Translations under genes and position numbers: made by a program
In this document: one piece after another, positions 25,169-41,028 of the stretch
How the letters are laid out: every line of letters begins with the position of its first letter
How positions within the stretch are numbered: position 1 is the first letter of the stretch
Notes under the pieces: model-generated
Databases searched by the model: none
What the model saw: only the letters and a program-made list of their open reading frames with translations
What the model was told of the DNA's origin: nothing
Assembly (NCBI RefSeq): GCF_001618865.1
Contig: NZ_CP015136.1
Coordinates: forward strand, 4,065,001-4,129,000
Source of the DNA: Luteitalea pratensis
GTDB taxonomy: Bacteria; Acidobacteriota; Vicinamibacteria; Vicinamibacterales; Vicinamibacteraceae
Direction of reading: 5' to 3'
Length of the DNA stretch: 64,000 nucleotides

Positions 25169-25243
25169 ACTGTCAAATCGGGTATTCCGGAGCGAATTTG
25201 ACGCGATTTATTGAGCAATTCGCATGATCGAGTGGTACTGAGT

Positions 25244-25283
25244 AGTCCGAATGTACGGCGTTATTCGGACTGTTATTCGGACT
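25244..25283. repeat. Candidate arm-type integrase sites, left arm of C
   Basis: TATTCGGACT occurs at 25262 and 25274 (12-bp spacing) and an inverted AGTCCGAAT at 25244, about 75-115 bp inside att2. The same decamer is repeated in the right arm at 40894. Confidence 0.6.
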
Positions 25284-25319
25284 TTTTTTCTAGCGTCCAA
25301 CGCCTAGCCTGGCCCACAA

Positions 25320-25348
25320 GCGCGGCAATCCGAGCCGGGGTGGACGCT
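25320..25348. repeat. Left-end motif, copy in element C
   Basis: Third copy of the motif described at 17268-17296, just before the 3' end of the PEP-CTERM gene. Sequence identity with element B continues for about a kilobase. Confidence 0.65.
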
Positions 25349-25396
25349 ACACGAGGGCGCTCCGGCTCGAAGTGCGCGTCTCCGCACGTCCTGTGA

Positions 25397-26044
25397 TCAG
25401 CGACGGCGGCGCCGTAGGGCGACCGCGCCAGCGACAAAGAGGAGCAGGGTGGTCGGCTCAGGCACGGCGCGCACGGTGGCGGTCGCCTCGGTAAAGATCC
25501 CGCCGACGTTGGTCAGCCCGATCCGCATCGCCAAGCTGCCCCCCGTGACACCCGCCGCCGACGTCGGGATGTCATAACCTGGCGTGCCATACCACCACAA
25601 CGCACCTTCAATGGGCGTCGGGAACTGCGGGTCAAACACCGTCGTGGACGACACGCGGAAGAACCGGAAGACGACACCCGCGCCGATCTTGCCGATCCCG
25701 CAATTGCCGTCCTGTGTGTTCATTTCGAGTGGCCCGCCGAGGATCGCGAAACTGTCGTCGCCAATGGTACTGCTGCCAAAGTTCGCGAACGAGTAGACGC
25801 CTCCTGCCCCACCCGCCCGCGGATCGCTGCATCCGTTGCGCGTCTCCGTGTTCAGTGACAGGTCAACGCGCCACGGGTCGCCAAGGGCGAAGTGGGATCG
25901 AAAGTCACCCGCGCCGGTGCCGAAGTCCGGGCGGACGTCCATCACCGTGACGGTGCCTGTGAATGTCCAGTCAACGATGGCTGCAGCGGATGGCGAAGCG
26001 GTGCAGATGAGAGCGAGCGCAGTCGCGATAATGAGTCGGAACAT
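25397..26044 (-). CDS. PEP-CTERM sorting-domain protein (element C)
   Basis: A 215-residue paralogue of 19207-19854: the same signal peptide region (ATALALICTASPSAAA), the paired cysteine segments and the same tail VPEPTTLLLFVAGAVALRRR. The coding differences between the two copies are more numerous than in the flanking repeat, yet both frames stay open. This suggests the protein is kept functional. Confidence 0.88.
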   Translation of the reverse strand: MFRLIIATALALICTASPSAAAIVDWTFTGTVTVMDVRPDFGTGAGDFRSHFALGDPWRVDLSLNTETRNGCSDPRAGGAGGVYSFANFGSSTIGDDSFAILGGPLEMNTQDGNCGIGKIGAGVVFRFFRVSSTTVFDPQFPTPIEGALWWYGTPGYDIPTSAAGVTGGSLAMRIGLTNVGGIFTEATATVRAVPEPTTLLLFVAGAVALRRRRR

Positions 26045-26285
26045 AGTGCGCAGCTTAGCGCCAAATGGGCCGCACGGATCAGCTTAATCGGCACCGTGGC
26101 AATTTCACGCGGGGGCTAGGGTCCCGGGCGACATCCGCACGGTGACTGGCGAACGGTCCACACAACTTCGAGCGTTGGAAACCGCCGCTAGGGGCCTAGC
26201 GCTCCCGGTCGAGTCGTGTGGTACCCGTTGCGCATCCACGGCCGTCAGACGCGGGCAGGTGCGGCCGTCAGGCACACGTCCGCCC

Positions 26286-26927
26286 ATGGTCAACCCGGCA
26301 TCTCTCCAGGCAATCGCCCCGATCCGCGTGCCAGTGCCGGTACGCGGCCGTGCCTACGTTCACGAATTGAAGTTCGACGGCTTCCGTGGCGTGGTCTGCA
26401 TCGGCGACGACGAGCCCGTGGTGTACAGCAAGCGCGGCCACCCGTTCGCCCGCTTCGCGCAGCTCGGGCGCGAAGTCGCCGCCGCTCTCGCCGGCAGGAC
26501 GGCGATCCTGGATGGTGAAATCGTCTGCCTCGACGCGAATGGACGGCCAGACTTCGCCGCGCTCATGTCACGGCGTGGCACGCCGGTCTATGCGGCGTTC
26601 GACTTGATGGCGCTCGACGGCCAGGATCTGCGGGCACTCCCGCTTCTCGAGCGGAAGCGCCGGCTGCGGCGCCTAGTTCGACACGACGGACCCGCGCTGC
26701 GGTACGTGCCGCATGTGCGGTGCGATGGCGCGGACTTCTTCCGAGCGGCCTGCGCGCTCGACCTCGAGGGCATCGTCAGCAAGCCGGCCGACTCTCCGTA
26801 CGTCTGTGCGCCGAGCCCGTGGCGGAAGACGTTGAACCCGACGTACAGCCAGAAGTCTGAAGCGCGCTTCGAGTTGTTCACGCGGCCTCGTCGTCTTGCA
26901 GTCGGCGCCTCACCTGCCGCACGCTGA
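26286..26927 (+). CDS. DNA-ligase adenylation domain protein without OB fold
   Basis: A 213-residue protein matching the nucleotidyltransferase domain of ATP-dependent ligases of the LigD type. Motif I HELKFDGFRG (lysine near residue 30), AILDGEIVCLDANGRPDF, motif IIIa-like AAFDLMALDGQD, motif IV LEGIVSKPADSPY and motif V SPWRKTLNP are all present. The OB-fold domain that normally follows, with motif VI, is absent. The last 15 residues (TRPRRLAVGASPAAR) differ from the copy in element B and seem to come from a recombination joint. Whether it seals nicks alone is unknown. Confidence 0.8.
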   Translation: MVNPASLQAIAPIRVPVPVRGRAYVHELKFDGFRGVVCIGDDEPVVYSKRGHPFARFAQLGREVAAALAGRTAILDGEIVCLDANGRPDFAALMSRRGTPVYAAFDLMALDGQDLRALPLLERKRRLRRLVRHDGPALRYVPHVRCDGADFFRAACALDLEGIVSKPADSPYVCAPSPWRKTLNPTYSQKSEARFELFTRPRRLAVGASPAAR

Positions 26928-27169
26928 CGCCGGCCAGGTCGGCCCACAGCTCGATCCGGTGCTTGTCAGTGGGCAGCAAGGCCCACGTGAATTATCGGCT
27001 CCCATACCGACATCTCCGACGAGATGTCATTCGCCAAGACGACAACAGTTCGCCGCGCAGTAAATTGTGCCAACGCCTTTGCACTTCTGTCCCACTTTTG
27101 CAGTGGCATTGATTTCGCACTTCAGCCGTATGCCCCCGGTGTGCATCTTCGAGTGCTGGAGATGAAACT

Positions 27170-27604
27170 ATGCAGGCGGTTGCTTGGTTGCTCGGTGTAG
27201 CAGCGTTTGTGTTGTCGACTTGGTGTCTTGTCTTTGGCCCTGCAGCCTCAGAATTGTTAAGAATCCTCGCTGCGCTGGTGTCTGCGGGGGGGCTATGCCT
27301 TGTTGTGAGCCTTACTCTTCTCGGCGAAGCGGGGAAGCAACACGCCGATCAAGACGACGAGGCGGACGCACGCCGCATTCGCGACTACTTCACGCAGAAT
27401 CCGCAGCACCTTCTTGAGCTGAAACGGCATGTTCAGCGCCGGAAGGCATACCAAGACGAACGTGGCTATTGGCACGCTGACGACTGGTTTCGCGGGCTTG
27501 ATCGGTATATCGAGGAGAAACTTACGTCAGAAATCGCCCGCGCAGCCCAACTCTCCGATGTGCGCCCGGAGACCGATAAGACTCTTGGGTGCGGAAAACA
27601 TTGA
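27170..27604 (+). CDS. Hypothetical membrane-anchored protein
   Basis: A 144-residue protein with two N-terminal membrane segments (AVAWLLGVAAFVLSTWCLVF, LRILAALVSAGGLCLVVSLTLL) followed by a charged soluble part (DYFTQNPQHLLELKRHVQRRKAYQ...). No family recognised. GGAG lies just before the ATG. The gap 26928-27169 upstream holds no gene I can support, and this stretch is less GC-rich than its surroundings. Confidence 0.6.
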   Translation: MQAVAWLLGVAAFVLSTWCLVFGPAASELLRILAALVSAGGLCLVVSLTLLGEAGKQHADQDDEADARRIRDYFTQNPQHLLELKRHVQRRKAYQDERGYWHADDWFRGLDRYIEEKLTSEIARAAQLSDVRPETDKTLGCGKH

Positions 27605-27755
27605 TTCGGCGAGGTATCTGTCAGTCCTTCGGGCTCAGGTCACCGACACCGGGAGTCAAGGACAGTGCATAGCGCCACTGGCCTGGCCGCATCTCAAGCA
27701 GATGCTGGTAGCGGACAACATTACGCCGCGGTGCGCGAAGAATTCAGGCAGGGCA

Positions 27756-28358: not shown

Positions 28359-28778
28359 TCACCGGCGACGTTGCGACACTCTACGGGCCGCCGCAGCCAG
28401 CTCACTGGCGACGCGCTCGTCCACCTCAAACGCCACGGCGAATCCGAGTGGAGGATTGACGTAGGCCACGTGTCCGGCGGCTTCGATGGGACTACCGCCT
28501 GGCACTCGCAGCGTGAGCGTCACGCGCTCGCCCGTGACCGGCGTGGCAATGTCCTCAATGAAGCAGCCGCTGAGACTGAAGTCCGCGACGCGCACGTGGC
28601 GGTGCCCCGAGGTTCCGCTCCAGGTCACTTCGAATGGACCGATAGCGCGGTGCTTGCCGCGACGTTCGGCGGTCATCGGCGCGATTCTGCGCGTCGAACA
28701 CTTCTCGTCTCTCGTCGGCGGGTCAGACAGTGCCGGCGCCTCGCCCACCTGCCCGCCGGCGGCTCTTTTAGACGTCAT
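28359..28778 (-). CDS. PilZ-domain protein
   Basis: About 139 residues. The C-terminal 105 residues form a PilZ domain: RRGKHRAIGPFEVTW, VRVADFSLSGCFIED and the strand pair GHVAYVNPPLGFAVAFEV. PilZ domains bind cyclic di-GMP through RxxxR and (D/N)xSxxG motifs; here RRGKHR and DFSLSG fit. The ATG at 28778 overlaps the end of the upstream gene by 11 bases; a later ATG at 28676 is possible. Last gene of a three-gene leftward operon. Confidence 0.78.
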   Translation of the reverse strand: MTSKRAAGGQVGEAPALSDPPTRDEKCSTRRIAPMTAERRGKHRAIGPFEVTWSGTSGHRHVRVADFSLSGCFIEDIATPVTGERVTLTLRVPGGSPIEAAGHVAYVNPPLGFAVAFEVDERVASELAAAARRVSQRRR

Positions 28779-29052
28779 GGTCGTCGACCGTGGCGTCCAG
28801 CGGGGTGTACAGCCCGTCAACGCAGCGGTAGCCGCGGGTGCTGGACGCTGCGGCCATCAGTCGGGCCTCGTCTTCGAAGCGGGGGCCGGCCTCCACGACA
28901 GACTCGAAGGTGACCCGAATCACCCTCTGGGTGGCATTATCCGAGAGCCGGATCAGGGCGAGACGCGAATTGCCGGACAGACGTTGCCGCTGGTAGAGGA
29001 CGACGTAGTCTCCGGGGCCAGGCGCAAGGGGAGATGTCGCGTCGCTCATCAT
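28768..29052 (-). CDS. Hypothetical protein in PilZ operon
   Basis: A 94-residue protein, beta-rich and acidic at the C-terminus (GLYTPLDATVDDHDV). No family recognised. The start overlaps the stop of the upstream HTH gene as ATGA and its end overlaps the PilZ gene, so the three are translationally coupled. Confidence 0.6.
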   Translation of the reverse strand: MMSDATSPLAPGPGDYVVLYQRQRLSGNSRLALIRLSDNATQRVIRVTFESVVEAGPRFEDEARLMAAASSTRGYRCVDGLYTPLDATVDDHDV

Positions 29053-29273
29053 CGGCCGCCGTCGGTCTTCGAGGGAAAGGGTTGTCGCCTTGGGCCGCGC
29101 GACGGCAGGTCGTCTTGCAGCGAGAGGCTTTCATGCGCGGCCTTGGTGCGAACGGCCTCCACAGTGCGTCCCAGCGTGCCGGCGATCGCGGTTAGCGGTT
29201 CCTTGCGCTGCGCCAGTCGGCGCAGCAACGCAAGTTCGTCGGCGGTCCATCTACGGCTCTTGCTGTCCGACAT
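29049..29273 (-). CDS. SANT/Myb-like helix-turn-helix protein
   Basis: A 74-residue protein with RRWTADELALLRRLAQRKEPLTAIAGTLGRTVEAVRTKAAHE, the pattern of the small Myb/SANT-like DNA-binding domains found in phages and alpha-proteobacterial GcrA-type proteins. It begins the PilZ operon and may regulate it. The basic tail would fit DNA contact. Confidence 0.68.
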   Translation of the reverse strand: MSDSKSRRWTADELALLRRLAQRKEPLTAIAGTLGRTVEAVRTKAAHESLSLQDDLPSRGPRRQPFPSKTDGGR

Positions 29274-29734: not shown

Positions 29735-31144
29735 TCATACCCAGTCCATCAGTGCGTCCACCCGAACGAACGCACAGACCGGGCCGCCACGGTGCTGCTC
29801 GAGCCCGCACACGACGCCCGCAACGACATTGGCCAAGTCATCATGCCCACCGGGCGGGTGGTTGATGGTGTCGCGGCCGACCGCACTGGTGCGGCGTTCC
29901 AAGGCCGTGAGCTGGAGCGCCAACCGCTCGTCGCGGAGCAAGCGCACCCGTCCAGAGGTCAGGACCGGCAGCAATCCCAGGTACAACTCGGAGCGGTTCT
30001 GCTCGGCGATGCGGTAACGAATCCCGCGCCGATCAAACGGCTGGCGCGCCCACTCGCCGGCAAACCGGTCGCCGAACACCGTCGTGATGCGGTACTCGCG
30101 CAGATGCCGCACGAATCGGTCGACCGCCTCCTCGGGACTAAACGGAGGTCGAATCTCTACCAGCAAGTCAGTGACATGCGTACTCACGTCACGCACCCGC
30201 TCGGTGTGGGCGATCGCCAGTGTCATCGAGTCCTGGCCAGAGCCGCCGGCCGGGTCAACGAAGGCGCGATAGGCGTGCCGGCTGTCGTACGGACGGACGG
30301 TCACGTCATAGGTGCACGCCTCGACGATCTCACGCGAGACGTAGCCCTCGAGGTCGGAGCGGAACTCGCCGAGGTATTCGCTGCGGGCCGACGCCTCGTC
30401 CCGGTGCATCGCCATCGAGATCGTGCGTTCACTCACGGTGGGGTTCATTAAGCGCGTGGGGCTGCGCCACACAAGGCACGGGGCGTCCGCCTTGCCGTAG
30501 TACTTATCGAACAGCCGGTAGACCTCCCCGCGCTTCGCGTACGGGCTCGACAAAAGGACGAGCATCGCATCGGGGACTGTGGCCATCGCGGGCCTGAGCG
30601 CCGATAGAATCTCGTGATCCGGGTTCGCAGAATCGTCCGATCTGAAAAAGGCCAGTTCATCGACGCACGCGCCTACGCAGGTGAAGCCGCGGATGGATCG
30701 GAAATTGTTGGCGTGCACCTCCAGCCGGACGCCCGACGAGAACGTTATGGACTCCTTGGTCTCGCTGACGATGGTCGCCGCGAGCACTGGGACGGCGCGC
30801 AGTAGTCCGCGCACATACCGCAACAGCACCCTTGCCTGGCGACGGTCAGCCGCGATGCACATGAAGACCGGGTCCGTACCGGCGGGGAGGTGGTACTGCT
30901 TGAAGACGCAGCGATCGATCGCAATCGCCGCCGTCGCGAACGTCTTCCCTGACCGGCGGCCCATCACGCCGAGCACCTCGGGGGCCGCTGCGGTGGGCCA
31001 GGTCTGCCGCCCCGTGCACGCTTGAAACACCTCGAGCGAGTCCGCGTACGGGGTCGGCAGGCCGTGCACCGCCGCAACGAAGGTGTGCCAACTGCGGAAG
31101 GACTCGCCGCCGAGGTGCGGACCGAGGAGTTCCTCAGCCCGCAT
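29735..31144 (-). CDS. Phage-type terminase large subunit (TerL)
   Basis: 469 residues from the ATG at 31144 (a GTG at 31183 is possible). The ATPase part has Walker A GVMGRRSGKT (near residue 65) and Walker B CVDELAFF (near residue 155), followed by LLSSPYAKRGEVY, which fits the coupling motif. The nuclease part shows FVDPAGGSGQDS, GDRFAGEWARQPF and the metal-binding HDDLANV near the end. Large terminases cut concatemeric DNA and drive it into procapsids. No capsid or portal gene lies in the element, so it would have to load helper-phage particles or have another use. An inactivated copy lies in element B. Confidence 0.88.
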   Translation of the reverse strand: MRAEELLGPHLGGESFRSWHTFVAAVHGLPTPYADSLEVFQACTGRQTWPTAAAPEVLGVMGRRSGKTFATAAIAIDRCVFKQYHLPAGTDPVFMCIAADRRQARVLLRYVRGLLRAVPVLAATIVSETKESITFSSGVRLEVHANNFRSIRGFTCVGACVDELAFFRSDDSANPDHEILSALRPAMATVPDAMLVLLSSPYAKRGEVYRLFDKYYGKADAPCLVWRSPTRLMNPTVSERTISMAMHRDEASARSEYLGEFRSDLEGYVSREIVEACTYDVTVRPYDSRHAYRAFVDPAGGSGQDSMTLAIAHTERVRDVSTHVTDLLVEIRPPFSPEEAVDRFVRHLREYRITTVFGDRFAGEWARQPFDRRGIRYRIAEQNRSELYLGLLPVLTSGRVRLLRDERLALQLTALERRTSAVGRDTINHPPGGHDDLANVVAGVVCGLEQHRGGPVCAFVRVDALMDWV

Positions 31145-31184
31145 CACGTCCAGCGCCGTCACGGTGGTGGATGCGTTGACCACG

Positions 31185-31300: not shown

Positions 31301-32401
31301 CTAGGTCTTCGCCTTCTTCAGGACTGGCGCCCAGGCCTTCGACGTCGCCGTGCGGAGACGCGCGCGCTGATCCGCATCCCGCTGTGCGCTCTCCAGCCCG
31401 AACACACCCGACGGCGCGAAGCCGTGCTTCATGGCGTTCTGCAACAAGACGGTCGCTTTCGCAACCTGCGCATGCATGACATCGATCAGCGCCCGTTCGG
31501 CGGCATGCGCTTGACGGATGGACGCCGGCACGCGCGCGGTTCGGATGTCGTCGACCCGCTGGCGCAATGCGGACGGCAACACATCCGCCGGCAGCGGCGT
31601 CGGCAGCGACCCGTCGAGTACGAGGTCGAGCAAGAAATCAGCCCGACGCTTCAATGCTCCCGACGTGCCCGATTCCGCGTACCGCAGGAGCAGCGCGACC
31701 GACGTGTCGCGGGGAATCTCGGTGGCCGCCGTCTGCTCGTCAATCGAGGAACGGATCGCCGTCATGTCCTGACGCAGCGCACGCAGTTCGACAAGCTGAC
31801 GGCCTACGAGCTGGTCCGTCGAGTGCAGTAATGACTTCGGATCCAGCGCGCGCTGCTCGTCGGCGGTGAGAGCCGGTACCGCGTTGATGGCGTAGGCGTC
31901 CGGTACGCTGCGGCTGGTCTGTACGGCGCGCGCGTGGGCCTCGGCGATGGCCGTATGCGCTTCCTGCAGCGAGCCCACGACAGCCTCGGCAACCGCACGC
32001 TGCTGGTCCTGCCAGGCGCGGTCGATACGCCGTGCGACCTCGCCGTCGACCTCGTCGACCGACATCGCCTTGTTGCGGGGCAGTGTCCGCATGTACTCCG
32101 CGCGCGCCGCCGCGATCCGCTGCTGGCGCGTGACCGGGTCCTGGCCGGTGAACGCGAGTGGCAGCGATTCGAGCACGTCGACCAGGGCATCGAAGCGCGG
32201 GCCGAGCGGGGCGATAGTCTTCGCCATGGTCACGGCCGACGTGTCGCCGAAGACGCGTACGGCGTACTCGGTGTCGACGTCCTCGGCCGGCGTAGCCGCC
32301 TTCAACAGGTCGCTCGACGACAGCGTGGACGGGACTGGCGCGGCGGGCGTAGGAACTGCGGCGACGACGGGAATCGTATCAACGGCCTGCATTAGGCTCA
32401 T
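31301..32401 (-). CDS. Unknown 366-residue helical protein between terminase genes
   Basis: A Pro/Ala-rich N-terminus is followed by long Ala/Arg/Glu-rich helices (EVDGEVARRIDRAWQDQQRAV, AIAEAHARAVQ) and a basic C-terminus (SKAWAPVLKKAKT). No membrane segment, no cysteine-rich part, no catalytic motif known to me. The position in the packaging-gene string suggests a structural, scaffold or packaging accessory role, but nothing in the sequence proves it. Confidence 0.7.
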   Translation of the reverse strand: MSLMQAVDTIPVVAAVPTPAAPVPSTLSSSDLLKAATPAEDVDTEYAVRVFGDTSAVTMAKTIAPLGPRFDALVDVLESLPLAFTGQDPVTRQQRIAAARAEYMRTLPRNKAMSVDEVDGEVARRIDRAWQDQQRAVAEAVVGSLQEAHTAIAEAHARAVQTSRSVPDAYAINAVPALTADEQRALDPKSLLHSTDQLVGRQLVELRALRQDMTAIRSSIDEQTAATEIPRDTSVALLLRYAESGTSGALKRRADFLLDLVLDGSLPTPLPADVLPSALRQRVDDIRTARVPASIRQAHAAERALIDVMHAQVAKATVLLQNAMKHGFAPSGVFGLESAQRDADQRARLRTATSKAWAPVLKKAKT

Positions 32402-32586: not shown

Positions 32587-32898
32587 CTACCGTCGGGTCG
32601 TGGTGGACTTCAAAGCTTCGGGCGGGATGTTGCCCTTGCCGTACTGGAGGGCGGCCCGCTCGGCCGGCGTGAACGCGCCGTAGCTACGGACCGCAGGTCC
32701 AGGCGCGATGAGGGAATCCACGTCGACGTCGAGCGTGGCCGCGAGGGCCTCGGCGGCACGGCGGGATGGGCCGCGACGCTGACAGAGGGCGTAGGTCCAC
32801 ACGGTGGTCTCGTCGAGACCGGCGTGGTACGCAATGAGGGCGAGTGCGCGCCCGTCCTTGAGAGCGGCGTCAGCGAGGCCGCGAAGGTGGGTAGCCAT
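32587..32898 (-). CDS. HTH-like small protein
   Basis: 103 residues. LALIAYHAGLDETTVWTYALCQRRGPSRRAAEALAATLDV reads like an XRE-type helix-turn-helix, and YGAFTPAERAALQYGKGNIP follows. The ATG directly follows the TAA of the preceding gene. It may be a regulator of the late genes. Confidence 0.6.
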   Translation of the reverse strand: MATHLRGLADAALKDGRALALIAYHAGLDETTVWTYALCQRRGPSRRAAEALAATLDVDVDSLIAPGPAVRSYGAFTPAERAALQYGKGNIPPEALKSTTTRR

Positions 32899-33123
32899 TT
32901 AATCGATCTCCTGTCGGGTGGGTGGGCGCTGGTGACGCGGCGCGACGAACGTCGGGAAGGCAGCTAGGAGCGCACGAGCGAGGCGATCGCGCTGTGCCAG
33001 TAGGCAGGGCACCATCACTTCGCACACAAGCGCGGAGAACGGCTCGGAGGGCGCGGGCGTGCGCGCGTAGCGCTCGGCTTCCTCGAGCACGTCGGTCAGG
33101 GCAGTCTCGGGTTTGGCGATCAC
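32899..33123 (-). CDS. Hypothetical 74-residue protein
   Basis: A helical protein (ETALTDVLEEAERYARTPAP, LVCEVMVPCLLAQRDRLARALL). The GTG at 33123 overlaps the upstream stop as GTGA, which decides the start; the longer frame upstream is arginine-rich shadow. No family recognised. Confidence 0.55.
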   Translation of the reverse strand: MIAKPETALTDVLEEAERYARTPAPSEPFSALVCEVMVPCLLAQRDRLARALLAAFPTFVAPRHQRPPTRQEID

Positions 33124-33449
33124 GACGTCGGTCCTTCTGTGGGCGGGACGCGCAACACCGTGCCATCGACCTGCGTGATGGCGTCGTATTGCGACAACGT
33201 GACGATCGTGTTGGCACCGTCGTGGACCAGCGCCAGTCCCGCATCCGTCAGCGGGACGCGCACCAGCCCGACGTCGTGACAGCCGCGCCGACGCGTGATG
33301 CGCACCCACGGGTCGAGCGCGTTGGCCATGCCGTCGATCGCCGCCTGATGGTCGTCACCGGACAGCGGGCCAGCCGCCGGCAGTCCGGCTATGGTGTTGG
33401 CGATGGCGTACAAGTCGGTGTCGGTGACGATGCGGCTGGACGCGTTCAT
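33120..33449 (-). CDS. Hypothetical 109-residue protein
   Basis: The protein mixes a helical N-terminal half (DLYAIANTIAGL, DDHQAAIDGMANALDPWVRI) with a beta-rich C-terminal half (LVRVPLTDAGLALVHDGAN, TVLRVPP). The ATG overlaps the upstream stop as ATGA. No family recognised; its coupling to the small-terminase-like gene suggests a shared role. Confidence 0.6.
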   Translation of the reverse strand: MNASSRIVTDTDLYAIANTIAGLPAAGPLSGDDHQAAIDGMANALDPWVRITRRRGCHDVGLVRVPLTDAGLALVHDGANTIVTLSQYDAITQVDGTVLRVPPTEGPTS

Positions 33450-34015
33450 CGTGTCGGCTCCTGTTTGCGGGCAGTGATGCTCGCGATCACGGAGTCGATG
33501 GTGTCGACCGACTTGGGCACGCGGCTCAGACCGATCTGGCCGGCCACGCGGTGGCGGCGATCGATGACCTGAAGCCACAGGGTCGCGGCTGCACGGCATC
33601 GGCCTTTCGACGACAGCAATCCGCCTTCGAGGTGCTGCTCGAGGCCGGCAGCGTACAGACCGAGGCGGACCCAATCGCGAATCAGTCCGGCCTTGGTGAC
33701 GCTCACCTGGGCCTCACCACCAAGGTCGGCGACGATGGCCGCAGCCTGCTCCTGAATCAGCCCGGCGACTGCCTGCTGGCCCGGGAGTAGCCCCGCCTGC
33801 ATGGCGCGGGACCGTCCACCATGGGTTTGCCGGGCTGTGTTGCCCTCGCCGAACCTCTGGCCCACGCCGTTCCCTGGCTGAAAGCGGCCATGGCGATCAC
33901 GTCCAGCCGTCGGGCTTTCCTCGTTCGGCCGTACCAATTCCATCGCCGGTTCGGACTGCGGTTCGGACTGCGCCGCCATAATCGGCGATATCTCGTTAAT
34001 TTCGGCCTGATTCAT
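33446..34015 (-). CDS. Small-terminase-like protein (tentative)
   Basis: 189 residues. The segment DRHGRFQPGNGVGQRFGEGNTARQTHGG has the RFxPGN...GNxxxxxHG pattern common at the start of phage small-terminase and DUF5681-type proteins. It is followed by a helical region (LIQEQAAAIVADLGG, LIRDWVRLGLYAAGLEQHL) and a short tail. Small terminases recognise the packaging site. First gene after the primase in the leftward string. Confidence 0.5.
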   Translation of the reverse strand: MNQAEINEISPIMAAQSEPQSEPAMELVRPNEESPTAGRDRHGRFQPGNGVGQRFGEGNTARQTHGGRSRAMQAGLLPGQQAVAGLIQEQAAAIVADLGGEAQVSVTKAGLIRDWVRLGLYAAGLEQHLEGGLLSSKGRCRAAATLWLQVIDRRHRVAGQIGLSRVPKSVDTIDSVIASITARKQEPTR

Positions 34016-34135: not shown

Positions 34136-36688
34136 TCACGCAACCTCCTCTGACTCAATGACGGATAGTGACGCGTCATCCCGAAGAGAGCTGTATAGCG
34201 GTTTGGTACGTGAGACCTTTTCAAAAACAGGGCCCGATGCGTCATCCGTCATGATCGAGACGGGACCGGCGGCCAGACGCAGGCCCGTGAAGCCCCGCCG
34301 GATGGAGGTCCGGGACGGGGTCGCATGCTTCTGAATTTCCGCGCCGAACCGCTTGGCACCCCACCGATCGCGGCCGCGGATGCCTTCGCTGTCGCACCAC
34401 GCCTCGAACGCGCCGTACAGGGCGGCACTGGTTTCGTACGCCGCTGCGTCCTTGACGGTGCGCGCGTTGAGGAACTGGCCGAGGATGTCCGAGTCGTCCC
34501 GCCACTGCGCTGTGGTCCGCTGGACGATGCGCGGCTCAGGCAGGCCCTGCCGCTGGAAGTACGCGACGCAGCCGGACACCAGCCACGCCAGGATGCCCGG
34601 GGCCTGCGCCTTGAGCCCGTCCTTGTACGACGCATTGACCGGGAAGCTGTGCGGGAATGGCACGGTGCGGACGCGTCGCCAGAAGCCCTTCGAGGTGTCG
34701 TTGACGTTGGGCAATTCGTTGCACGCGAAGAGCAACTTGAACTGCGGGTAGAACTCCATGAAATTCTGATGCAGCAGCCGGCACTTGATCGGCTCGTCGC
34801 CGGTCAGGTTCTTGAGGCGGACCGCATCCATCTGTCGTGAGTTCGAGAACTCCGAGACGGCGACGACCCGCTTCCCGCGAAGGACGGCAAGATCCTCGCC
34901 CCGCTTGTCCGCATCGCCGACAAACGAATCCGCGTTGGCGGTGGCCCCGTACTCGCCGAGGACGTACAGCAGGAGGTCGAGCAAGGTGCTCTTGCCGTTG
35001 GCGCCGCCACCCACACACAGCAACCACACCTGCTCGGTGGTCAGCCCGGTCAGGCACAGTCCGAGGAACAGCCATAGGAACTCGAGCAGCTCGAGACTCT
35101 CCTCGACGGTGAGTTTGCCAGGGCATTCGGCGAAGGTCGTGTTAAGGAACGTTTCGAACCGATCCATTGGCGCATCGGGATCGAACGGGATGCGCGTGGA
35201 CAGCGTGATCATGTCGGCGGGCTGGCCGGGCCGGAGCGCACCGGTCCGCAGATCTACGACGCCCGACGGCGTGCACAGGACGAGCGGGTTGGTGTCCCAC
35301 TCGGATCCGGACGTGGCGATCGCGGCGCGCGATTTGATCAACGACAACACCGCCTGCAAACCGCGGTTGGACTCGCACCGCCACAGGAACTTCAACCGGT
35401 TCGCGCGTGCATCCTTGTCGTCGATATCGAGCGCGTCATGCTGTAGGTGACGGACGTACGCGGCCAGAGCCCGGTCGGTGCGGTGATCGACGTCCTTGAC
35501 CCACCGGTGGCCGGTGAAGCTGTAGAACGTCTTCGCCTGGATGTCGTACTTGATCTGCCCGTCGTGCGCGGCGGCGAACTGCTCGGCGAGACGCAGCTCG
35601 GTATTCCGGGCGGCGTCGGTGGTCGGCTCGGCGTCGGTCGCAGTCGGCTCACCCGTTCGCTCCAGCCGCACCGGCACCGGCTGCGACGCGGGTGTGCCGT
35701 ACCCTTGCGCCCAGAGCGCCTTGGCGGCGGCCTTGTGGTCGCCGCCATGCTCGTAGGCCGCGTACACGCCGAACTTGTCGTACGAGCTGCGGCCGGAATC
35801 GAGCAGGCTGGAACTGGTGAACACCTTCATCACGTCCGAGCCGCCATAGCCGGTCGTAGCCGACAGGCCGGCCGTGGTCTTGCCGGGCCGCAGCCATGCC
35901 GTCACGCCATCGCGGCGCGTGTAGAGCGCCTGCCAGCCGTACCGGTCAAGGACGTCGTGCCACGACTGTCTAGCGTTGTAGTCATCGCCGGGGCGCACGT
36001 CCTGTCCTGCGGCGCGCGTTGCGCCACGCGGCGCGGCTGACGTCGGCACCTTGGCGGGCATCTCGTCGTACGACCGGAGATAGTCCAGAAGTGCGCGCCG
36101 TTCGGCCGGAGTGATCTCCACGATGGTCGCAAAGCCACCGGACAGGCGTACGTAGGGCTTCCCTGAGGGATGCACGCTGCTGAGGGTGGGCGCCACGACG
36201 GCATAGCCGCCTGTGCCGCGTGTCTCGATCAGCGTCGTCACCTCGTGGGCGGTGGCGGGACGGTGCGCAATCTTCTGGCTGCCCGTCACATCGGTGCAGC
36301 GATACAGCCAGCGACGGCCGCCCCGAGGGGTCCGATCGCAATAGCCGTTCTCGATCCGCGTCACGACGTCGTGGATCCGAGCGGCGTCCGCATGCTCTTT
36401 GGCTTGCAGGTACGTGGCTTCGTCGTCGAAGTCCATCGCCTCGACGCCAGGGAGCGCCGCGACGCGCGGATCCGGGTCGTCGGGTTTGGGTCCCGTGACA
36501 ATGCCGAGGGACGCGGCGCCGGGGTAGTAGCTGCGCACAGCCTGCGCGTTCGGCCGGGCGCGCTGGTACGCGGCCCACGCTTCAACGGGACGCTTCTCGT
36601 GGTTGCACGGCAGCGGCGAGAGTCCGGCCCTCCATGCCTCGCGCGCTTCATGGTGGACGAGATCGAGTTCAGCAGGGGAGGGATTCAC
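34136..36688 (-). CDS. P4-type primase-helicase (prim-pol plus SF3 helicase)
   Basis: 850 residues. The N-terminus (about 10-190) is a bifunctional primase-polymerase domain with LPCNHEKRP, an acidic DFDD motif near residue 95 and TPRGGRRWLYRC. The middle has the D5_N region (SFTGHRWVKD, WDTNPLVLCTPSGVVDLRTG). The helicase core (about 560-720) shows Walker A CVGGGANGKSTLLD, a Walker-B-like VAVSEFS, sensor KLLFACNELP and arginine segment GFWRRVRTVPF. A winged-helix end follows. Such proteins prime and unwind satellite or phage DNA for autonomous replication after excision. Confidence 0.93.
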   Translation of the reverse strand: MNPSPAELDLVHHEAREAWRAGLSPLPCNHEKRPVEAWAAYQRARPNAQAVRSYYPGAASLGIVTGPKPDDPDPRVAALPGVEAMDFDDEATYLQAKEHADAARIHDVVTRIENGYCDRTPRGGRRWLYRCTDVTGSQKIAHRPATAHEVTTLIETRGTGGYAVVAPTLSSVHPSGKPYVRLSGGFATIVEITPAERRALLDYLRSYDEMPAKVPTSAAPRGATRAAGQDVRPGDDYNARQSWHDVLDRYGWQALYTRRDGVTAWLRPGKTTAGLSATTGYGGSDVMKVFTSSSLLDSGRSSYDKFGVYAAYEHGGDHKAAAKALWAQGYGTPASQPVPVRLERTGEPTATDAEPTTDAARNTELRLAEQFAAAHDGQIKYDIQAKTFYSFTGHRWVKDVDHRTDRALAAYVRHLQHDALDIDDKDARANRLKFLWRCESNRGLQAVLSLIKSRAAIATSGSEWDTNPLVLCTPSGVVDLRTGALRPGQPADMITLSTRIPFDPDAPMDRFETFLNTTFAECPGKLTVEESLELLEFLWLFLGLCLTGLTTEQVWLLCVGGGANGKSTLLDLLLYVLGEYGATANADSFVGDADKRGEDLAVLRGKRVVAVSEFSNSRQMDAVRLKNLTGDEPIKCRLLHQNFMEFYPQFKLLFACNELPNVNDTSKGFWRRVRTVPFPHSFPVNASYKDGLKAQAPGILAWLVSGCVAYFQRQGLPEPRIVQRTTAQWRDDSDILGQFLNARTVKDAAAYETSAALYGAFEAWCDSEGIRGRDRWGAKRFGAEIQKHATPSRTSIRRGFTGLRLAAGPVSIMTDDASGPVFEKVSRTKPLYSSLRDDASLSVIESEEVA

Positions 36689-36906: not shown

Positions 36907-37002
36907 CGCTAGCGCACTCCATGGCGCCTTGCGGTGATCGCGGCGCGTTTGGGTCCCCACCCCAACGCGCCGCAACTGTTATCTCCCCTGTGAACGTCTC
37001 GC

Positions 37003-37197
37003 TCAGCCGACGGCGGCGAACGATTCCAGCCACGCATCCACCGACGACTGCCGCATCCTGAAGTGCCTTCCGCCCTGGAGGCGGATGGCCCGCAAGCGAC
37101 CAGACCGGATGCCGCGGCGCACGGTCGCGGGATCGCACTGCGCGATTGCGGCAGCCTGCTGCACCGTCAGCCACGGATCGGTCACGACAGGCGCCAT
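37003..37197 (-). CDS. Excisionase/MerR-like HTH protein
   Basis: 64 residues, WLTVQQAAAIAQCDPATVRRGIRSG with GRHFRMRQSSVDAWLESF, the helix-turn-helix-17 layout of excisionases and AlpA-like activators. The ATG at 37197 overlaps the upstream TAA as TAATG, which decides the start. Likely role: directing excision and/or switching on the primase operon. Confidence 0.8.
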   Translation of the reverse strand: MAPVVTDPWLTVQQAAAIAQCDPATVRRGIRSGRLRAIRLQGGRHFRMRQSSVDAWLESFAAVG

Positions 37198-37406
37198 TAC
37201 GGATTCGCGCATACCACCTGTCCCTGTAGCCAACGCTCGATGCCGTCAACTGGCAGCCGACAGTCACCACGCGCGCTGAAGCGGACCGCCGGCAACGCAC
37301 CGGCGTGAATCGCGCGATAGATAACGGCCCGGTGAATCCGCAGCGCCCGCGCGAGTTCGCGTGGTGTGCACGGGTTGGGTAAATCGCGCGTCAATGAGTC
37401 AGTCAT
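37197..37406 (-). CDS. Excisionase-like HTH protein
   Basis: 69 residues: CTPRELARALRIHRAVIYRAIHAGALPAVRFSARGDCRLPVDGIERWLQG has the same helix-turn-helix-17 pattern as the next gene. The two are translationally coupled and probably act together. The ATG at 37406 was chosen because the frame upstream has no protein character. Confidence 0.78.
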   Translation of the reverse strand: MTDSLTRDLPNPCTPRELARALRIHRAVIYRAIHAGALPAVRFSARGDCRLPVDGIERWLQGQVVCANP

Positions 37407-37686
37407 CAGTGTCACGTCCTGCAATGCGATGCACCGAGACGCGGTGCGGGAGTGGCCTACTGACAGTGTCAGGGACTGGAGGTTGATCTGTGATACCGCT
37501 GCCGCCACTCGCCTTGCCAATCGCCGGCGTGGGCGTCTGTTATGGCCGGCGCTCCACTCACACTGTGGGGCCGGGATCGCTTTGTCAAGGCCAAAGCGTA
37601 AGGATTAGTTCACATTAGGCCACTCTGGTCCACTCTGGTCCAACGCGGAAGCCCGCACAGGCCGACAGGGCCACTTCTCCGCGTCT

Positions 37687-38133: not shown

Positions 38134-38137
38134 CGAC

Positions 38138-38332
38138 ATGGCACCCAAGACGGTTACGCTGACCTTCCGCGCGGAGGTCGACCTGTACGCGCGGCTGGAT
38201 GCCGTGCGCCAGGCGTTCGGAACGCCGTTCAGCGAGCAGCTTCGACGCGGGATTGAACTGTGGCTGGCGCAGGTCGAGGGAGGCGGACTACCGCGGTCAC
38301 CAGCCAGGAAGGTCGCCGGCAAGAAGCGATAG
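38138..38332 (+). CDS. Ribbon-helix-helix (Arc/CopG-like) protein
   Basis: 64 residues: a strand KTVTLTFRAE, helix VDLYARLDAVRQAF, turn GTPF and helix SEQLRRGIELWLAQ, then a basic tail (ARKVAGKKR). This is the Arc/CopG/MetJ fold pattern. A palindrome just upstream suggests autorepression. It reads toward the integrase. Confidence 0.7.
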   Translation: MAPKTVTLTFRAEVDLYARLDAVRQAFGTPFSEQLRRGIELWLAQVEGGGLPRSPARKVAGKKR

Positions 38333-38459
38333 GCACAGCAGCAACGTCAGAAGATCGAAGCACCCGATACATGCACGAGCACCTGAAATAGAAAATGGCC
38401 CGCCGTGGCGCTAGCGTCGTCCCGTTTCCCGCGTCTCGCCGGTCCGTCAGCGGGGACGC

Positions 38460-38765
38460 GTGACCGCTCACGACTCTACCGACATGCCTCTCGACCCTGA
38501 CGCACCCGATCCCGTCGCCGCGCCGTCCCGGGTGCGTCTCTGGACGTTGCACAAGGACGGCCGCACGGCGACGTGCGACGCACAGGCGCACATGCTCGGC
38601 GTCGAGATCGTGTCCGAGGTGGACGGCGACGTCAGGCGGACGGAAGTGGCCCGCACGCCGCAGGCCGGCCAGGCGCTGGCGGACGAGGAAGCGCGTCATC
38701 AGCACGTGCGGCGAGCGCTGGCCGATGGCGTGAACGGGCGTGTCTCCGGCCGGAGTATCCGATGA
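38460..38765 (+). CDS. Hypothetical 101-residue protein
   Basis: A GTG start, then a Pro/Asp-rich N-terminus and RVRLWTLHKDGRTATCDAQ...ARHQHVRRALADGVNG. The C-terminal part resembles the frameshifted gene at 39352-39580 (WTVHF..., ARHHLVRRALADGVDA), so the two are paralogues flanking the SLOG-like gene. No family recognised. Overlaps the next gene as ATGA. Confidence 0.6.
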   Translation: MTAHDSTDMPLDPDAPDPVAAPSRVRLWTLHKDGRTATCDAQAHMLGVEIVSEVDGDVRRTEVARTPQAGQALADEEARHQHVRRALADGVNGRVSGRSIR

Positions 38766-39355
38766 CCGGCAGGGCGGTGGGCTTCATAAGCACCCGCGCT
38801 AGTATCCGGGATAGGGGCGAGCAGAGGTGGCGATTCGCCGATGTGCTGTGCCTGCTATTTTCGAGCGGCTACGGTCTGCCGAACGCGGGTCCCGGCATGA
38901 CGCCCGGGCAGCGGCTCCGGTTGGACGACTTGCTGGACACTTACGGCGCGTGGACCCCGGGCCTCGCGAGGGCGCACCACGGCATGGCGGCAGGAGCCGA
39001 CGCCGAGTTTCATGCCGCCGTGACCGCGCTGGGGTTGCCTACCTTTGGGCACCCAGGCGTGCATCGTGACGGCCGGCCCGAGGATCGGGCCGATGGCTTG
39101 GTCTGCACTAATGTGCGGCCCGAGTGCTTCGTGGACGAGAGGAATCGCGCGATCGCTCGCCAGACGGACGTGTTGTTTGTCGCCTCGCGAATTAGACGCG
39201 GCGGGCAGTATGACTCGGACATGGTGGCGGCCATCAGCGTCGCGCTGGACTTTCATAAGCCGATCTACGTCATGTGGCCCGACGGCACGTTCTCGAATGA
39301 CTTCTCGGCATGGCAGGCCTCCAGACAGACGTTTCCGCCGAGCTTCAGACCATGA
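38762..39355 (+). CDS. SLOG/DprA-like Rossmann-fold protein
   Basis: 197 residues. The arrangement AHHGMAAGADAEFHAAVTALGL, FGHPG, then FVDERNRAIARQTDVLFVA...GGQYDSDMVAAISVALDFHKPIYVMWPDG matches the SLOG superfamily (DprA, LOG, DUF2493 groups): a GAD turn, an (E/R)RN segment and a late strand ending PDG. Such proteins bind nucleotides or nucleotide-derived ligands, and many act in phage conflict. The start is coupled to the upstream gene. Its exact ligand is unknown. Confidence 0.68.
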   Translation: MTGRAVGFISTRASIRDRGEQRWRFADVLCLLFSSGYGLPNAGPGMTPGQRLRLDDLLDTYGAWTPGLARAHHGMAAGADAEFHAAVTALGLPTFGHPGVHRDGRPEDRADGLVCTNVRPECFVDERNRAIARQTDVLFVASRIRRGGQYDSDMVAAISVALDFHKPIYVMWPDGTFSNDFSAWQASRQTFPPSFRP

Positions 39356-39580
39356 GCGCCTGGACCGTGCATTTCGGCCCGTCACCCGCCGGACTGGCGT
39401 GAGGTTGTTCAGCGCGAGGACGGCAGCGGCCCCGCGATCGTCTGCCCGCCCGACCAGTACGAGGAAGCGCGGCACCATCTCGTACGGCGCGCCCTGGCCG
39501 ATGGCGTGGACGCGGTGCAGTACGTCGTGGACGTGGCGCAGGGGCAGCCGTGTGTGCGGCGCGAGGTGTTGGACCGCTGA
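39352..39580 (+). pseudogene. Frameshifted small gene, paralogue of 38460-38765
   Basis: The ATG overlaps the SLOG-like gene stop as ATGA and codes MSAWTVHFGPSPAGLA before a TGA at 39402. The next frame continues with WREVVQREDGSG, then DQYEEARHHLVRRALADGVDA and ends at a TGA (39580). One missing or added base near 39390-39400 would join both. It may be a pseudogene, a programmed shift or a sequencing error. Confidence 0.6.
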
Positions 39581-39610
39581 CCGCGGCTACGGTCAACGAA
39601 GGGAACGGCG

Positions 39611-40972
39611 ATGCCGAAAGTCACTCACAATGGCCTGACGAAGCGGTGCGAGTGCAAGCAGACGCAGTGGACCAAGTGCGCTCACCCGTGGATCGTGCGC
39701 TTCCACACCGACGGCCGTGAGCACTTCGTGAGCCTGCACAAATATGTTGGCTGGCCGAAGGGCAGTGTCATGCCGAAGACACAGGCCCTCAAGCTGGTGG
39801 ACAAGGTGCGGACCGAACTCCGCGACGGGCAGATCCGAAAGCGTTCGGCGGCCACCGCGACGACGGTCGGTGCGGTGATCGAGGCGTACCGCGAACGGTT
39901 CGTTCGGGTGCCCACGCGTCGCCAGCATGCCCGCGTGTCAATGGAAGGGCACCTCGACATGGTCGCGCGCCTCTCGGTGCCCGATGCGCGTGGGCGCCAG
40001 GTGCCGTTTGTCGATCTGCGGATGCGTGACGTCACGCCAGCCACGATCGAGGCGCTACGACACGCCCGCCGCCTCGAGCTGGCCGCAGCGGATGCCGCCT
40101 ACACCGAAGTGGTCCGGCTCACGGGCGCCGGGAAGGACGTGCCGACCGACCTGCGTCGGCGATCCCGACTGCGGACGCGCGGGAAGGGTGGGGAAGTCGG
40201 CCTCAACCGCCTGTTGGCCCGGCTACGACACCTCTTCTCGTGGGCGATCGCCCGCTACCAGGAAATCGAGCACCATCCCTTCCGGAAGGGCGGGATCGCC
40301 GTCGTGAAGCTGGCGAAGGAGACGGCGAGGTCTCGGCGGCTCCGAGCAGGCGAGGAAGACGGACTCATGATGCACGCCGGGCCACACCTGAAGTCGGTCA
40401 TCCTCGCCGGCCTGCAGACGGGCGCCCGCATCGGCGAATTGCTGAGCCTGCAATGGCATCAGGTCGAGCGAGACGCGCAGGACCGTCCCGTCCGGCTGCG
40501 TCTGACGGCCGACAAGACCAAGACGAGCCGAACCCGGATCCTGCCGGTGCCGCGCATGCTGGCGGCCATCCTTGACATGCGCCAGACGGCCCCAGACGGG
40601 CGGCGGCACGGCGACCACGCCTACGTGTTCGGCAACGAGGTCGGCGAGCAGGTGGAGCGGGTCCAGACGGCGTGGGAGACCTGCTGCCGGGCTGCCGGCA
40701 TTGCCGGGCTGCACTTCCATGACTTGCGGCGGGAGTTCGGGTCGCGGCTGCTGGACGCGGGCGTGCCGTTGACGACGATCCAGACCTACCTCGGCCACAC
40801 GTCGGTCACGACGACGGCGAAGTATTTGGAAGCCGATCAGTTGCTCGTGGCGACGGCCGTCGACGCCATCGAACGCGGCTGGAGCGACGACCGTATTCGG
40901 ACTTTATTCGGACTTTCGCCAGAAACGCCCGAAGCCACCGGTGTGGGCGGTGGCCGTAAGTTGTTGAATTAG
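39611..40972 (+). CDS. Tyrosine recombinase (integrase) of element C
   Basis: 453 residues. The catalytic domain holds all expected residues: arginine in GLQTGARIGELL, lysine in TADKTKTSRTR, HFHDLRREFGSR (H-x-x-R), the GHTSVTTTAKYL histidine and the final tyrosine. The N-terminus has a CECKQTQWTKCAHPW segment, perhaps a zinc-binding arm-binding domain. The gene ends ten bases before the att core in tRNA-Phe. Its last codons contain two TATTCGGACT repeats. Remnants of the same gene lie beside both other cores. Confidence 0.95.
   Translation: MPKVTHNGLTKRCECKQTQWTKCAHPWIVRFHTDGREHFVSLHKYVGWPKGSVMPKTQALKLVDKVRTELRDGQIRKRSAATATTVGAVIEAYRERFVRVPTRRQHARVSMEGHLDMVARLSVPDARGRQVPFVDLRMRDVTPATIEALRHARRLELAAADAAYTEVVRLTGAGKDVPTDLRRRSRLRTRGKGGEVGLNRLLARLRHLFSWAIARYQEIEHHPFRKGGIAVVKLAKETARSRRLRAGEEDGLMMHAGPHLKSVILAGLQTGARIGELLSLQWHQVERDAQDRPVRLRLTADKTKTSRTRILPVPRMLAAILDMRQTAPDGRRHGDHAYVFGNEVGEQVERVQTAWETCCRAAGIAGLHFHDLRREFGSRLLDAGVPLTTIQTYLGHTSVTTTAKYLEADQLLVATAVDAIERGWSDDRIRTLFGLSPETPEATGVGGGRKLLN
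40894..40914. repeat. Candidate arm-type integrase sites, right arm
   Basis: Two copies of TATTCGGACT, 11 bp apart, lie within the integrase 3' end about 70-90 bp from att3. They match the repeats in the left arm of C (25262, 25274) and those in the A remnant (18202, 18272). Confidence 0.6.
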
Positions 40973-40982
40973 AATGGTTTAG

Positions 40983-41028
40983 ATGGTGCCGAGGGGCGGA
41001 ATTGAACCGCCGACACTACGATTTTCAG
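40983..41028. other. Attachment core att3 in tRNA-Phe
   Basis: The 46-bp core that forms the 3' half of the functional tRNA-Phe gene. It ends at the anticodon loop (TTTTCAG), where the other cores diverge, so the strand exchange is within or next to the anticodon region. Confidence 0.92.

What the first reader, a model, noticed from the sequence alone, without database searches (positions are those of the whole stretch)
25169..41028. Element C: satellite-like element with a large terminase but no capsid genes
The gene order integrase, RHH/HTH switch, two excisionase-like genes, P4-type primase-helicase, small-terminase-like gene, unknown string, TerL is like P4 or PICI satellites, but known satellites mostly carry a small terminase or capsid-modifying genes rather than TerL alone. 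Carrying its own TerL could redirect helper-phage procapsids to its own DNA. Relatives of the terminase in two of the three tandem elements show that it is part of the family and not a chance passenger. A decayed prophage is the main alternative.
Basis: partly seen in the sequence, partly recalled or inferred. Interest (0 to 1): 0.8.

Follow-up and report, generated by a model that had tools for sequence, protein, structure and literature searches.

The report
Capsid-less satellite with its own terminase
A 16-kb mobile element in a bacterial chromosome carries a virus DNA-packing motor but no recognised genes for a virus shell, and many bacteria hold similar compact elements, which suggests a common kind of virus parasite that brings its own motor to stolen shells.

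Summary
Element C (25169-41028) lies between 45-bp copies of the tRNA-Phe 3' end. It carries an integrase, two excisionase-like genes, a Prim-Pol/D5 primase, a small-terminase-like protein (top fold match HK97 TerS, weak) and an intact two-domain TerL. No portal, capsid or tail gene was recognised. Element B is a deletion derivative with a broken TerL (dN/dS to C 0.13).

TerL relatives occur in Acidobacteriota, Pseudomonadota, Nitrospirota and Myxococcota. I delimited 38 att-bounded elements (6.4-16.2 kb, window included). Portal models hit none; 2 have a major capsid gene, 4 a head protease, 10 a tape measure. Two metagenome contigs with terminal repeats have TerL and tape measure but no recognised portal or capsid. 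A distant relative, Rctr16k, came from a viral metagenome; its authors could annotate no head protein.

I read C as a phage satellite that loads itself with its own TerS-TerL into helper procapsids. Packaging and helper are inferred. It fits none of P4, PICI, cfPICI, PLE or PICMI as described in passages read; two key satellite papers were not held. The same genome has two tRNA-bounded elements with the reverse content: capsid, no terminase detected.

The parts
25124..25168 (+). distal att copy (left border of C), 44/45 identical to tRNA-Phe 3' end
40984..41059 (-). tRNA-Phe; its 3' 45 bp (40984-41028) is the proximal att of C
39611..40972 (+). tyrosine integrase, 453 aa, ending 11 bp before the tRNA
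   Evidence: PF00589 3.1e-24; PHROG integrase 1.6e-40
38138..38332 (+). ribbon-helix-helix-like small protein
   Evidence: weak Arc-like PHROG match E 0.18; homologues in L024, L025, L057
37687..37959 (-). HTH_3 / Cro-CI-type repressor-like
   Evidence: PF01381 4.8e-05; PHROG repressor 3e-05
37197..37520 (-). HTH_17 excisionase-like protein 1
   Evidence: PF12728 5e-09
37003..37233 (-). HTH_17 excisionase-like protein 2
   Evidence: PHROG excisionase 3e-10; PF12728 9e-13
34136..36688 (-). Prim-Pol / D5 primase-helicase, 850 aa
   Evidence: PF09250, PF08706, PF19263; PHROG DNA primase 4.7e-102
33446..34015 (-). small-terminase-like protein (TerS), 189 aa
   Evidence: no Pfam hit, one unknown-function PHROG at E 0.16; homologues directly before TerL in 70 of 87 loci; Foldseek rank 1 HK97 TerS 8pop_B, prob 0.93, E 0.39
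33120..33449 (-). 109-aa unknown
   Evidence: no PHROG hit
32899..33123 (-). 74-aa unknown
   Evidence: coding score; the longer ORF 32899-33309 has only Pfam matches below cut-off
32587..32898 (-). 103-aa HTH-like unknown
   Evidence: PF13560 E 0.033, below cut-off
31301..32401 (-). 366-aa protein of unknown function, no homologue found
   Evidence: no Pfam hit, one unknown-function PHROG at E 0.018; among 19631 ORFs of the fetched loci only itself; no PDB relative at E under 0.1
29735..31183 (-). large terminase (TerL), 482 aa, ATPase and nuclease halves present
   Evidence: PHROG terminase 1.2e-28; family profile A1 matches T4 gp17 1e-9, two other phage TerL nucleases 1e-6 and a further TerL (6z6d) 5e-5; invariant K80, D310, D372, D448, D449
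29049..29273 (-). 74-aa match to part of a D5-like transcription regulator
   Evidence: phrog_323 1.4e-08
28768..29052 (-). 94-aa unknown
   Evidence: no PHROG hit
28359..28820 (-). PilZ-domain protein, likely cargo
   Evidence: PF07238 6.4e-08
26286..26927 (+). ATP-dependent DNA ligase-like protein, likely cargo; also in element B
   Evidence: PF01068 6e-18; relatives at 21535-22095
25397..26044 (-). PEP-CTERM protein, likely cargo; relative in element B at 19207-19854
   Evidence: PF07589 5.8e-05; 76% identical
23439..24847 (-). broken TerL of element B (frameshift, stop, changed Walker A lysine)
24845..25079 (+). integrase C-terminal remnant of element B, directly abutting its TerL remnant: deletion junction
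18067..18396 (+). element A remnant: integrase end (about 92% identical to C) plus att

Best explanation
Element C is an integrative phage satellite of a type that supplies its own DNA-packaging motor (TerS-like + TerL) but no capsid, portal or tail. On a helper signal the HTH switch is relieved, integrase and excisionase cut it out of tRNA-Phe, and the Prim-Pol/D5 primase-helicase makes concatemers. Its TerS marks satellite DNA, its TerL cuts it, docks on the portal of helper procapsids and pumps it in; helper tails and lysis complete transfer. Shown here: att borders, gene content, conserved TerL motifs, recurrence of the same module set in 38 att-bounded elements, contigs of relatives with terminal repeats (circular or concatemeric form), one distant relative from a viral metagenome. 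Inferred: induction, packaging specificity, docking on a helper portal.
For: 45-bp att borders at tRNA-Phe; in same-genus genome G002 the flanks of the insertion are only about 2.2 kb apart. TerL two-domain profile matches and invariant catalytic-type residues. dN/dS 0.13 between the TerLs of C and B. Relatives: 37 other att-bounded elements, median of all 38 11.7 kb; TerS cluster in 32 of 38, adjacent to TerL in 23 of those 32; portal HMM hits 0 of 38. Terminal direct repeats: L136 and L138, with TerL and tape measure and no portal or capsid HMM hit (PHROGs of 10 L136 proteins). Rctr16k: TerL homologue (1e-45), no portal/MCP HMM hit, from a viral metagenome (passages of PMC5099504). Own genome has no PF04860 or phrog_12 portal, consistent with an outside helper.
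Against: No direct evidence that C excises or is packaged. No helper identified. TerS identity rests on position and a weak fold match (HK97 TerS tied with generic helical bundles in the second aligner). C's TerL has a long branch in the tree. C has extra genes between TerS and TerL, including a 366-aa protein without relatives. TerL relatives with portals exist on viral contigs, so the TerL is not exclusive to satellites. 13 of the 38 elements carry at least one recognised virion gene besides terminase. Only 16 of 38 carry one of the three primase clusters counted, though other primases occur (L086, L068, L110).
Confidence: 0.7

Rival explanations
1. Decayed prophage: C is what is left of a tailed prophage that lost its structural genes while int, primase and terminase happened to survive.
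For: Element B next to it shows that such deletions happen. TerL relatives with portals exist in viral contigs. C's left arm holds cargo rather than virion genes.
Against: The same compact integrase-(primase)-TerS-TerL layout without a detected portal recurs in 37 other att-bounded elements across several phyla, which independent decay would hardly give; TerL is under purifying selection (dN/dS 0.13); contigs of relatives with terminal repeats lack a recognised portal, and L136 and L138 also a capsid.
Confidence: 0.12
2. The family is a real satellite type, but C itself is no longer mobile; its terminase is open yet useless without a helper, or it lost a needed gene.
For: No resident portal of the types tested; extra unique genes between TerS and TerL; tandem remnants A and B show decay at this site.
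Against: Integrase, primase and TerL of C are open and of family length; satellites of virulent phages need no resident helper (PICMI, passages of PMC10803314).
Confidence: 0.13
3. The terminase serves another end: for example, TerS-TerL act as an anti-phage nuclease or a mobilisation enzyme, and the element moves by other means such as general transduction or as a plasmid.
For: Plasmid forms exist in Komagataeibacter (pKNA06, apparent tandem dimer with ParA).
Against: Both ATPase and nuclease halves and the TerS neighbour are kept; several relatives also carry tape measure, protease or capsid genes, which only make sense in virions; Rctr16k came from a viral metagenome.
Confidence: 0.05

Closest known systems
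PICI / SaPI satellites with terS (passages of PMC6092414)
   Same: Integrase at one end, divergent switch, excisionase, primase, TerS in the late arm, no portal.
   Different: Own TerL here; in the PICI passages packaging relies on the helper with TerS or cos/pac, and the text has 0 occurrences of 'terL'.
Capsid-forming PICI (cfPICI) and Streptomyces MulchRoom/MiniFlayer (passages of PMC10690885)
   Same: Own TerS and TerL in a small satellite.
   Different: Those carry portal and major capsid (plus protease or scaffold and connectors) as well; C carries none that I could recognise.
PLE of Vibrio cholerae (passages of PMC7567579; PMC12987554)
   Same: Integrating satellite; PLEs also replace tail parts (TMP, TAC, BhuB), as 10 of the 38 elements here may do with their tape measure.
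   Different: [quoted passage not shown] C has TerL and no recognised tape measure. The 2026 paper also reports tmp genes in some cfPICIs, so a satellite tape measure is not new.
PICMI (passages of PMC10803314)
   Same: Minimal satellite with integrase and primase and no capsid genes.
   Different: PICMI 'lacks identifiable packaging genes'.
Virus Rctr16k KX853514 (PMC5099504, passages and section 28)
   Same: 16.7 kb, integrase, TerL homologue, no head protein annotated by the authors, from a viral metagenome.
   Different: TerL only 26-29% identical to satellite TerLs; has a head protease and tape measure and a weak scaffold match; its authors call it a phage.

Membership tests
Integrative phage satellite (broad) | integrase plus att-bounded small element | tested here: met
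   45-bp att, integrase, 15.9 kb
Integrative phage satellite (broad) | lacks a full virion gene set | tested here: met
   no portal, capsid or tail hit
Integrative phage satellite (broad) | mobilised and packaged by a helper phage | not testable with these tools
   needs experiment
P4-like | uses the helper's terminase, with Sid/Psu-type genes | tested here: not met
   own TerL present; no Sid/Psu match for the 10 C proteins given to PHROGs and 10 given to Pfam
PICI | int, switch, xis/AlpA, primase, optional terS; no TerL | tested here: not met
   first part met; own TerL present
cfPICI | MCP, portal, protease and connectors with TerS/TerL | tested here: not met
   no MCP or portal HMM hit in C
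PLE / PICMI | no large terminase gene | tested here: not met
   TerL present
Complete tailed prophage | portal, capsid and tail module | tested here: not met
VEIME / tycheposon | virion-encapsidated marine integrative elements | not tested
   the Eppley 2022 paper is not held; tycheposon paper not looked up; definition from passages of PMC10803314

The most novel reading that the evidence does not exclude
Virion parts are spread over several satellites. In this genome one element brings the packaging motor (C: TerS + TerL) and two others (L209 at tRNA-Pro, L210 at tRNA-Thr) bring an HK97 capsid and a prohead-protease-like protein, with no terminase or portal detected. They might work as a mix-and-match kit: co-induced by one helper, satellite-made capsids are filled by a satellite-made motor, and the helper supplies only portal and tail.
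Probability: 0.12. Interest if true: 0.92.

Novelty: new variant of a known kind. Interest (0 to 1): 0.76.

Why it matters
In the passages read, known satellites either borrow the packaging motor, redirect it with TerS or an adaptor, or make the whole head. A satellite that brings the complete motor but no shell would need its TerL to work on a foreign portal. That makes it testable how specific the terminase-portal contact is, and whether such satellites can use many helpers. The family is wide (Acidobacteriota, Alpha- and Gammaproteobacteria, Nitrospirota); its TerL is annotated 'hypothetical protein' on the plasmid records found (two Komagataeibacter, two Methylobacterium, one partial Roseomonas match), and C's TerL has no match of 60% identity or more in 50,697 phage records. 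Satellite finders that look for capsid plus TerL, or for TerS alone, may therefore miss it (inference).

Tried and rejected
Full prophage with missed head genes: rejected for C, since Pfam and PHROG scans gave no head or tail hit besides TerL and portal and capsid HMMs gave none. TerL as a chance passenger: rejected, because of the conserved neighbours TerS, primase and integrase. c7/c8, a helical protein in 14 of 38 elements: mean pLDDT 93, but no informative match in PDB or BFVD; absence of a match is not evidence of a new fold. TerS second look by VIA-align: HK97 TerS Z 8.7 (rmsd 2.8, 85 aligned), tied with unrelated helical bundles: inconclusive.

PHROG tally of 140 proteins: it prints only 25 of 145 families, so single portal hits could hide there; I added portal HMMs, size accounting and single scans. 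The tally shows one major-head family (phrog_617) matching 3 members, while capsid HMMs find only 2 (L083, L108) among the same proteins and in six frames; the third member is not identified. It may be L083's protease, but that is a guess, so 'capsid in 2 of 38' could be 3. Size accounting leaves proteins of 340 aa or more without assignment (L019 424 aa, L076 379, L088 463 and 380, L101 584: no PHROG hit at 1e-3; others not scanned, for example L024 425 aa, L085 349, L087 346, L088 343 and 737, L104 430 and L146 1108); L085 432 aa, L071 365 aa, L111 431 aa and L115 369 aa match only unknown-function PHROGs. The portal HMMs rest on 2 to 18 sequences each.

Flanking repeats: 73 loci besides the window have TerL and integrase; 41 printed a repeat or tRNA; I dropped L091 and L125 (same contigs as L018, L019), L090 (repeats not at a tRNA, look like a duplicated stretch) and L096 (contig ends). 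Own-genome phrog_146 found nothing, but its control did not ring: uninformative. Tree: quick method, long branches; L156, L157 and L159 were labelled no-portal but have portals, so its 6 portal changes are only indicative. Helper co-occurrence: portals in 29 of 48 genomes, HK97 capsids in 31 of 48, no baseline, so no claim. Literature: 10 searches listed no paper recognisable as describing TerS+TerL satellites without capsid; Eppley 2022 and Moura de Sousa 2023 are not held, so novelty is not proven. AH14b (PMC4936722, passages and outline): no terminase named for it in the passages seen.
Full report
OBSERVATION. The window is 64 kb of a 7.48-Mb single-contig genome. Its tRNA-Phe gene (40984-41059, minus strand) gives three copies of its 3' 45 bp: 40984-41028, 25124-25168 and 18352-18396. 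Element C is the 15.9-kb unit next to the tRNA; the integrase ends 11 bp before it. In same-genus genome G002 the two flanks (window 4460 and 41261) are about 2.2 kb apart, with the tRNA between them, in inverted orientation relative to the flanks, and 0.76 kb from the 4460 side; in G001 about 10 kb of other DNA lies between window 5480 and the tRNA. So about 35 kb at this tRNA is extra DNA: an insertion hotspot. The species may be Luteitalea pratensis; this is recalled from genome size and gene content and was not checked.

GENE CONTENT OF C. Integrase, HTH repressor-like protein, two HTH_17 excisionase-like proteins, Prim-Pol/D5 primase-helicase, a 189-aa small-terminase-like protein, four unknowns (109, 74, 103 and 366 aa), TerL, then a cargo arm with PilZ, DNA ligase-like and PEP-CTERM proteins. 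The TerL family profile matches T4 gp17 over the ATPase part, two other phage TerLs over the nuclease part, and 6z6d (I recall these as D6E, G20c and HK97 TerL, the table does not say so). Invariant residues in nine relatives include K80 of the Walker A motif and D310, D372, D448, D449, which lie where RuvC-like TerL nucleases have catalytic acids (the assignment to catalysis is inference).

ELEMENTS A AND B. B (18397-25168) is a deletion derivative of a C-like element: a TerL remnant directly abuts an integrase C-terminal remnant. Its TerL has a frameshift, a stop and a changed Walker A lysine. Over 375 codons, C and B TerL differ with dS 0.56 and dN 0.073, dN/dS 0.13, so the TerL was under selection for most of that divergence. 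A is only an integrase tail plus att.

THE FAMILY. A scan of species genomes gave 108 loci, 80 kept: mostly Alphaproteobacteria, also Halomonas, Marinobacter, Pseudidiomarina, Pseudomonas, Alteromonas, Nitrospira, Acidobacteria and Deltaproteobacteria (one labelled Myxococcota). Viral contigs gave 35. Among 116 loci clustered, TerL is in all, a TerS-like cluster in 87 (immediately upstream of TerL in 70), and an integrase cluster in 74. Against 50,697 phage records C's TerL finds 128, all under 60% identity; the 20 listed are at 20.6-27.2%. TerLs of L068, L134 and L136 find 9, 67 and 4 records, all under 60%.

BORDERS. Of 73 loci with TerL and integrase, 41 printed a repeat or nearby tRNA; after dropping four (see Tried and rejected) 37 remain. 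With the window, 38 elements of 6.4-16.2 kb, median 11.7 kb; 24 have repeats of 25 bp or more, 14 have 14-22 bp. In a control, 17 of 300 random locus pairs gave repeats of 14 bp or more, so the short repeats are weak alone; in 13 of those 14 the repeat overlaps a tRNA gene, L115 being the exception.

WHAT THEY LACK AND HAVE. Portal HMMs built from six portal types hit none of the 38 even at E<10. The HK97 capsid is in 2 (L083, L108) and a head protease in 4 (L078, L083, L111, L146). A tape-measure match is present in 10: L019, L024, L059, L099, L083, L066 (weak), L070, L095, L107, L108; L068 has an 840-aa protein without a hit. That leaves 25 of 38, window included, with no virion gene recognised beyond the terminase, within the limits under Tried and rejected (one unidentified major-head match, capped list, unassigned proteins). 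Outside the 38, some loci carry a portal: L141, L147, L151, L152, L154, L156, L157, L159, L160, L162, L163, L165, L166, L169, L170 (L147, L154, L157, L162 and L169 by similarity to scanned ones); L163 has portal and capsid and looks like a phage. In a quick tree portal-bearing loci lie among the satellite TerLs, so satellites and phages seem to have exchanged this TerL. C's own TerL sits on a long branch.

SMALL TERMINASE AND c7/c8. The model of C's 189-aa protein on 61 sequences (mean pLDDT 76.6) has HK97 TerS as Foldseek rank 1 (prob 0.93, E 0.39; other HK97 chains prob 0.57-0.89), but the second aligner ties it with generic bundles. Position and weak fold together support TerS. A helical protein, c7/c8 (two clusters, HHalign probability 98.7), is found in 14 of 38 elements, as a rule right after TerL; its role is unknown. 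C does not have it.

FREE FORMS. Whole contigs L136 (9,398 bp), L138 (9,819 bp) and L149 (9,545 bp) from IMG/VR and L096 (14,168 bp, Acetobacter pomorum) have exact terminal repeats of 60, 114, 123 and 51 bp, as circular or concatemeric molecules give. L138 and L136 are cut at different points of the same map. L136 has integrase, replication-initiator-like protein, TerS, TerL, c7, a connector (tail completion or Neck1) and tape measure; none of the 10 proteins scanned is a portal or capsid. L149 has capsid and protease (by cluster) and tape measure but no portal HMM hit at 1e-3. Whether these metagenomes were virus-enriched is not known. Relatives also exist as plasmids in Komagataeibacter.

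A RELATIVE FROM A VIRAL METAGENOME. Virus Rctr16k (KX853514, 16.7 kb) has a homologous TerL (profile E 1e-45), an integrase, a tape measure, a head protease and a weak scaffold match, and no portal or capsid HMM hit. From passages and section 28 of Gambelli et al. 2016 (PMC5099504): one sample's biomass was DNase-treated and PEG-precipitated (I did not read the full preparation); the 16-kb contig had identical ends, read as complete and circular; [quoted passage not shown] The relation is distant (26-29% identity), so it supports the idea by analogy, not C directly.

MECHANISM. See Best explanation. The anatomy implies excision, own replication and own DNA loading; helper shells, portal and tail are inferred because they are missing. 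Members with a tape measure may also build chimeric tails, as shown for PLE (passages of PMC12987554).

HELPER. In the own genome PF04860 and phrog_12 portals are absent, with controls that ring. PF05065 capsid is found at four places. Two are tRNA-bounded elements, L209 (49-bp repeats, tRNA-Pro, 9.5 kb) and L210 (50-bp repeats, tRNA-Thr, 9.3 kb), each with integrase, capsid and a protein that reads like a prohead protease, and without a hit to the portal HMMs or the TerL profile A1; phrog_2 terminase matches in this genome also lie elsewhere. The protease name is by eye. The other two places look like remnants. Thus one genome holds motor-only and capsid-only elements; whether they cooperate is unknown.

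NOVELTY. By the passages read, P4, PICI, cfPICI, PLE, PICMI and the Streptomyces satellites differ in a defining feature. Ten paper searches listed no description of TerS+TerL satellites without capsid, but the VEIME and SatelliteFinder papers are not held. I rate it a new variant of a known kind.

Noticed in passing
L209 2789-12321 and L210 6159-15482 (G000:C1 about 4588789-4598321 and 5381159-5390482): Two further tRNA-bounded elements in the same genome carry integrase, prohead-protease-like protein and HK97 capsid but no hit to the TerL profile or portal HMMs: the reverse of element C.
   Followed up: partly
window 18397-25168: Element B is a deletion derivative: broken TerL fused to an integrase tail, with ligase-like and PEP-CTERM cargo related to that of C.
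   Followed up: yes
window 4460-40983: The flanks of this stretch lie about 2.2 kb apart in same-genus G002, where the tRNA is inverted, and G001 has about 10 kb of other DNA there: an insertion hotspot.
   Followed up: partly
L202 (Komagataeibacter nataicola pKNA06): A 25.8-kb plasmid looks like a head-to-tail dimer of a TerS-TerL-DUF2213 element with VapE primase and ParA; TerL is annotated as hypothetical protein.
   Followed up: partly
L201 (Rctr16k, KX853514): A 16.7-kb genome from a viral metagenome with TerL, protease and tape measure but no portal or capsid hit; possibly an unrecognised satellite.
   Followed up: partly
L082:11486-11902 and L078:11481-12221: Small protein c25 after TerL seems by eye to share C-terminal repeats with the DUF2213 head protease c19; perhaps a scaffold-like remnant.
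   Followed up: no
L078, L111 (Nitrobacter vulgaris) and L077, L106 (Mesorhizobium tianshanense): Some genomes hold two loci of this TerL family on different contigs.
   Followed up: no
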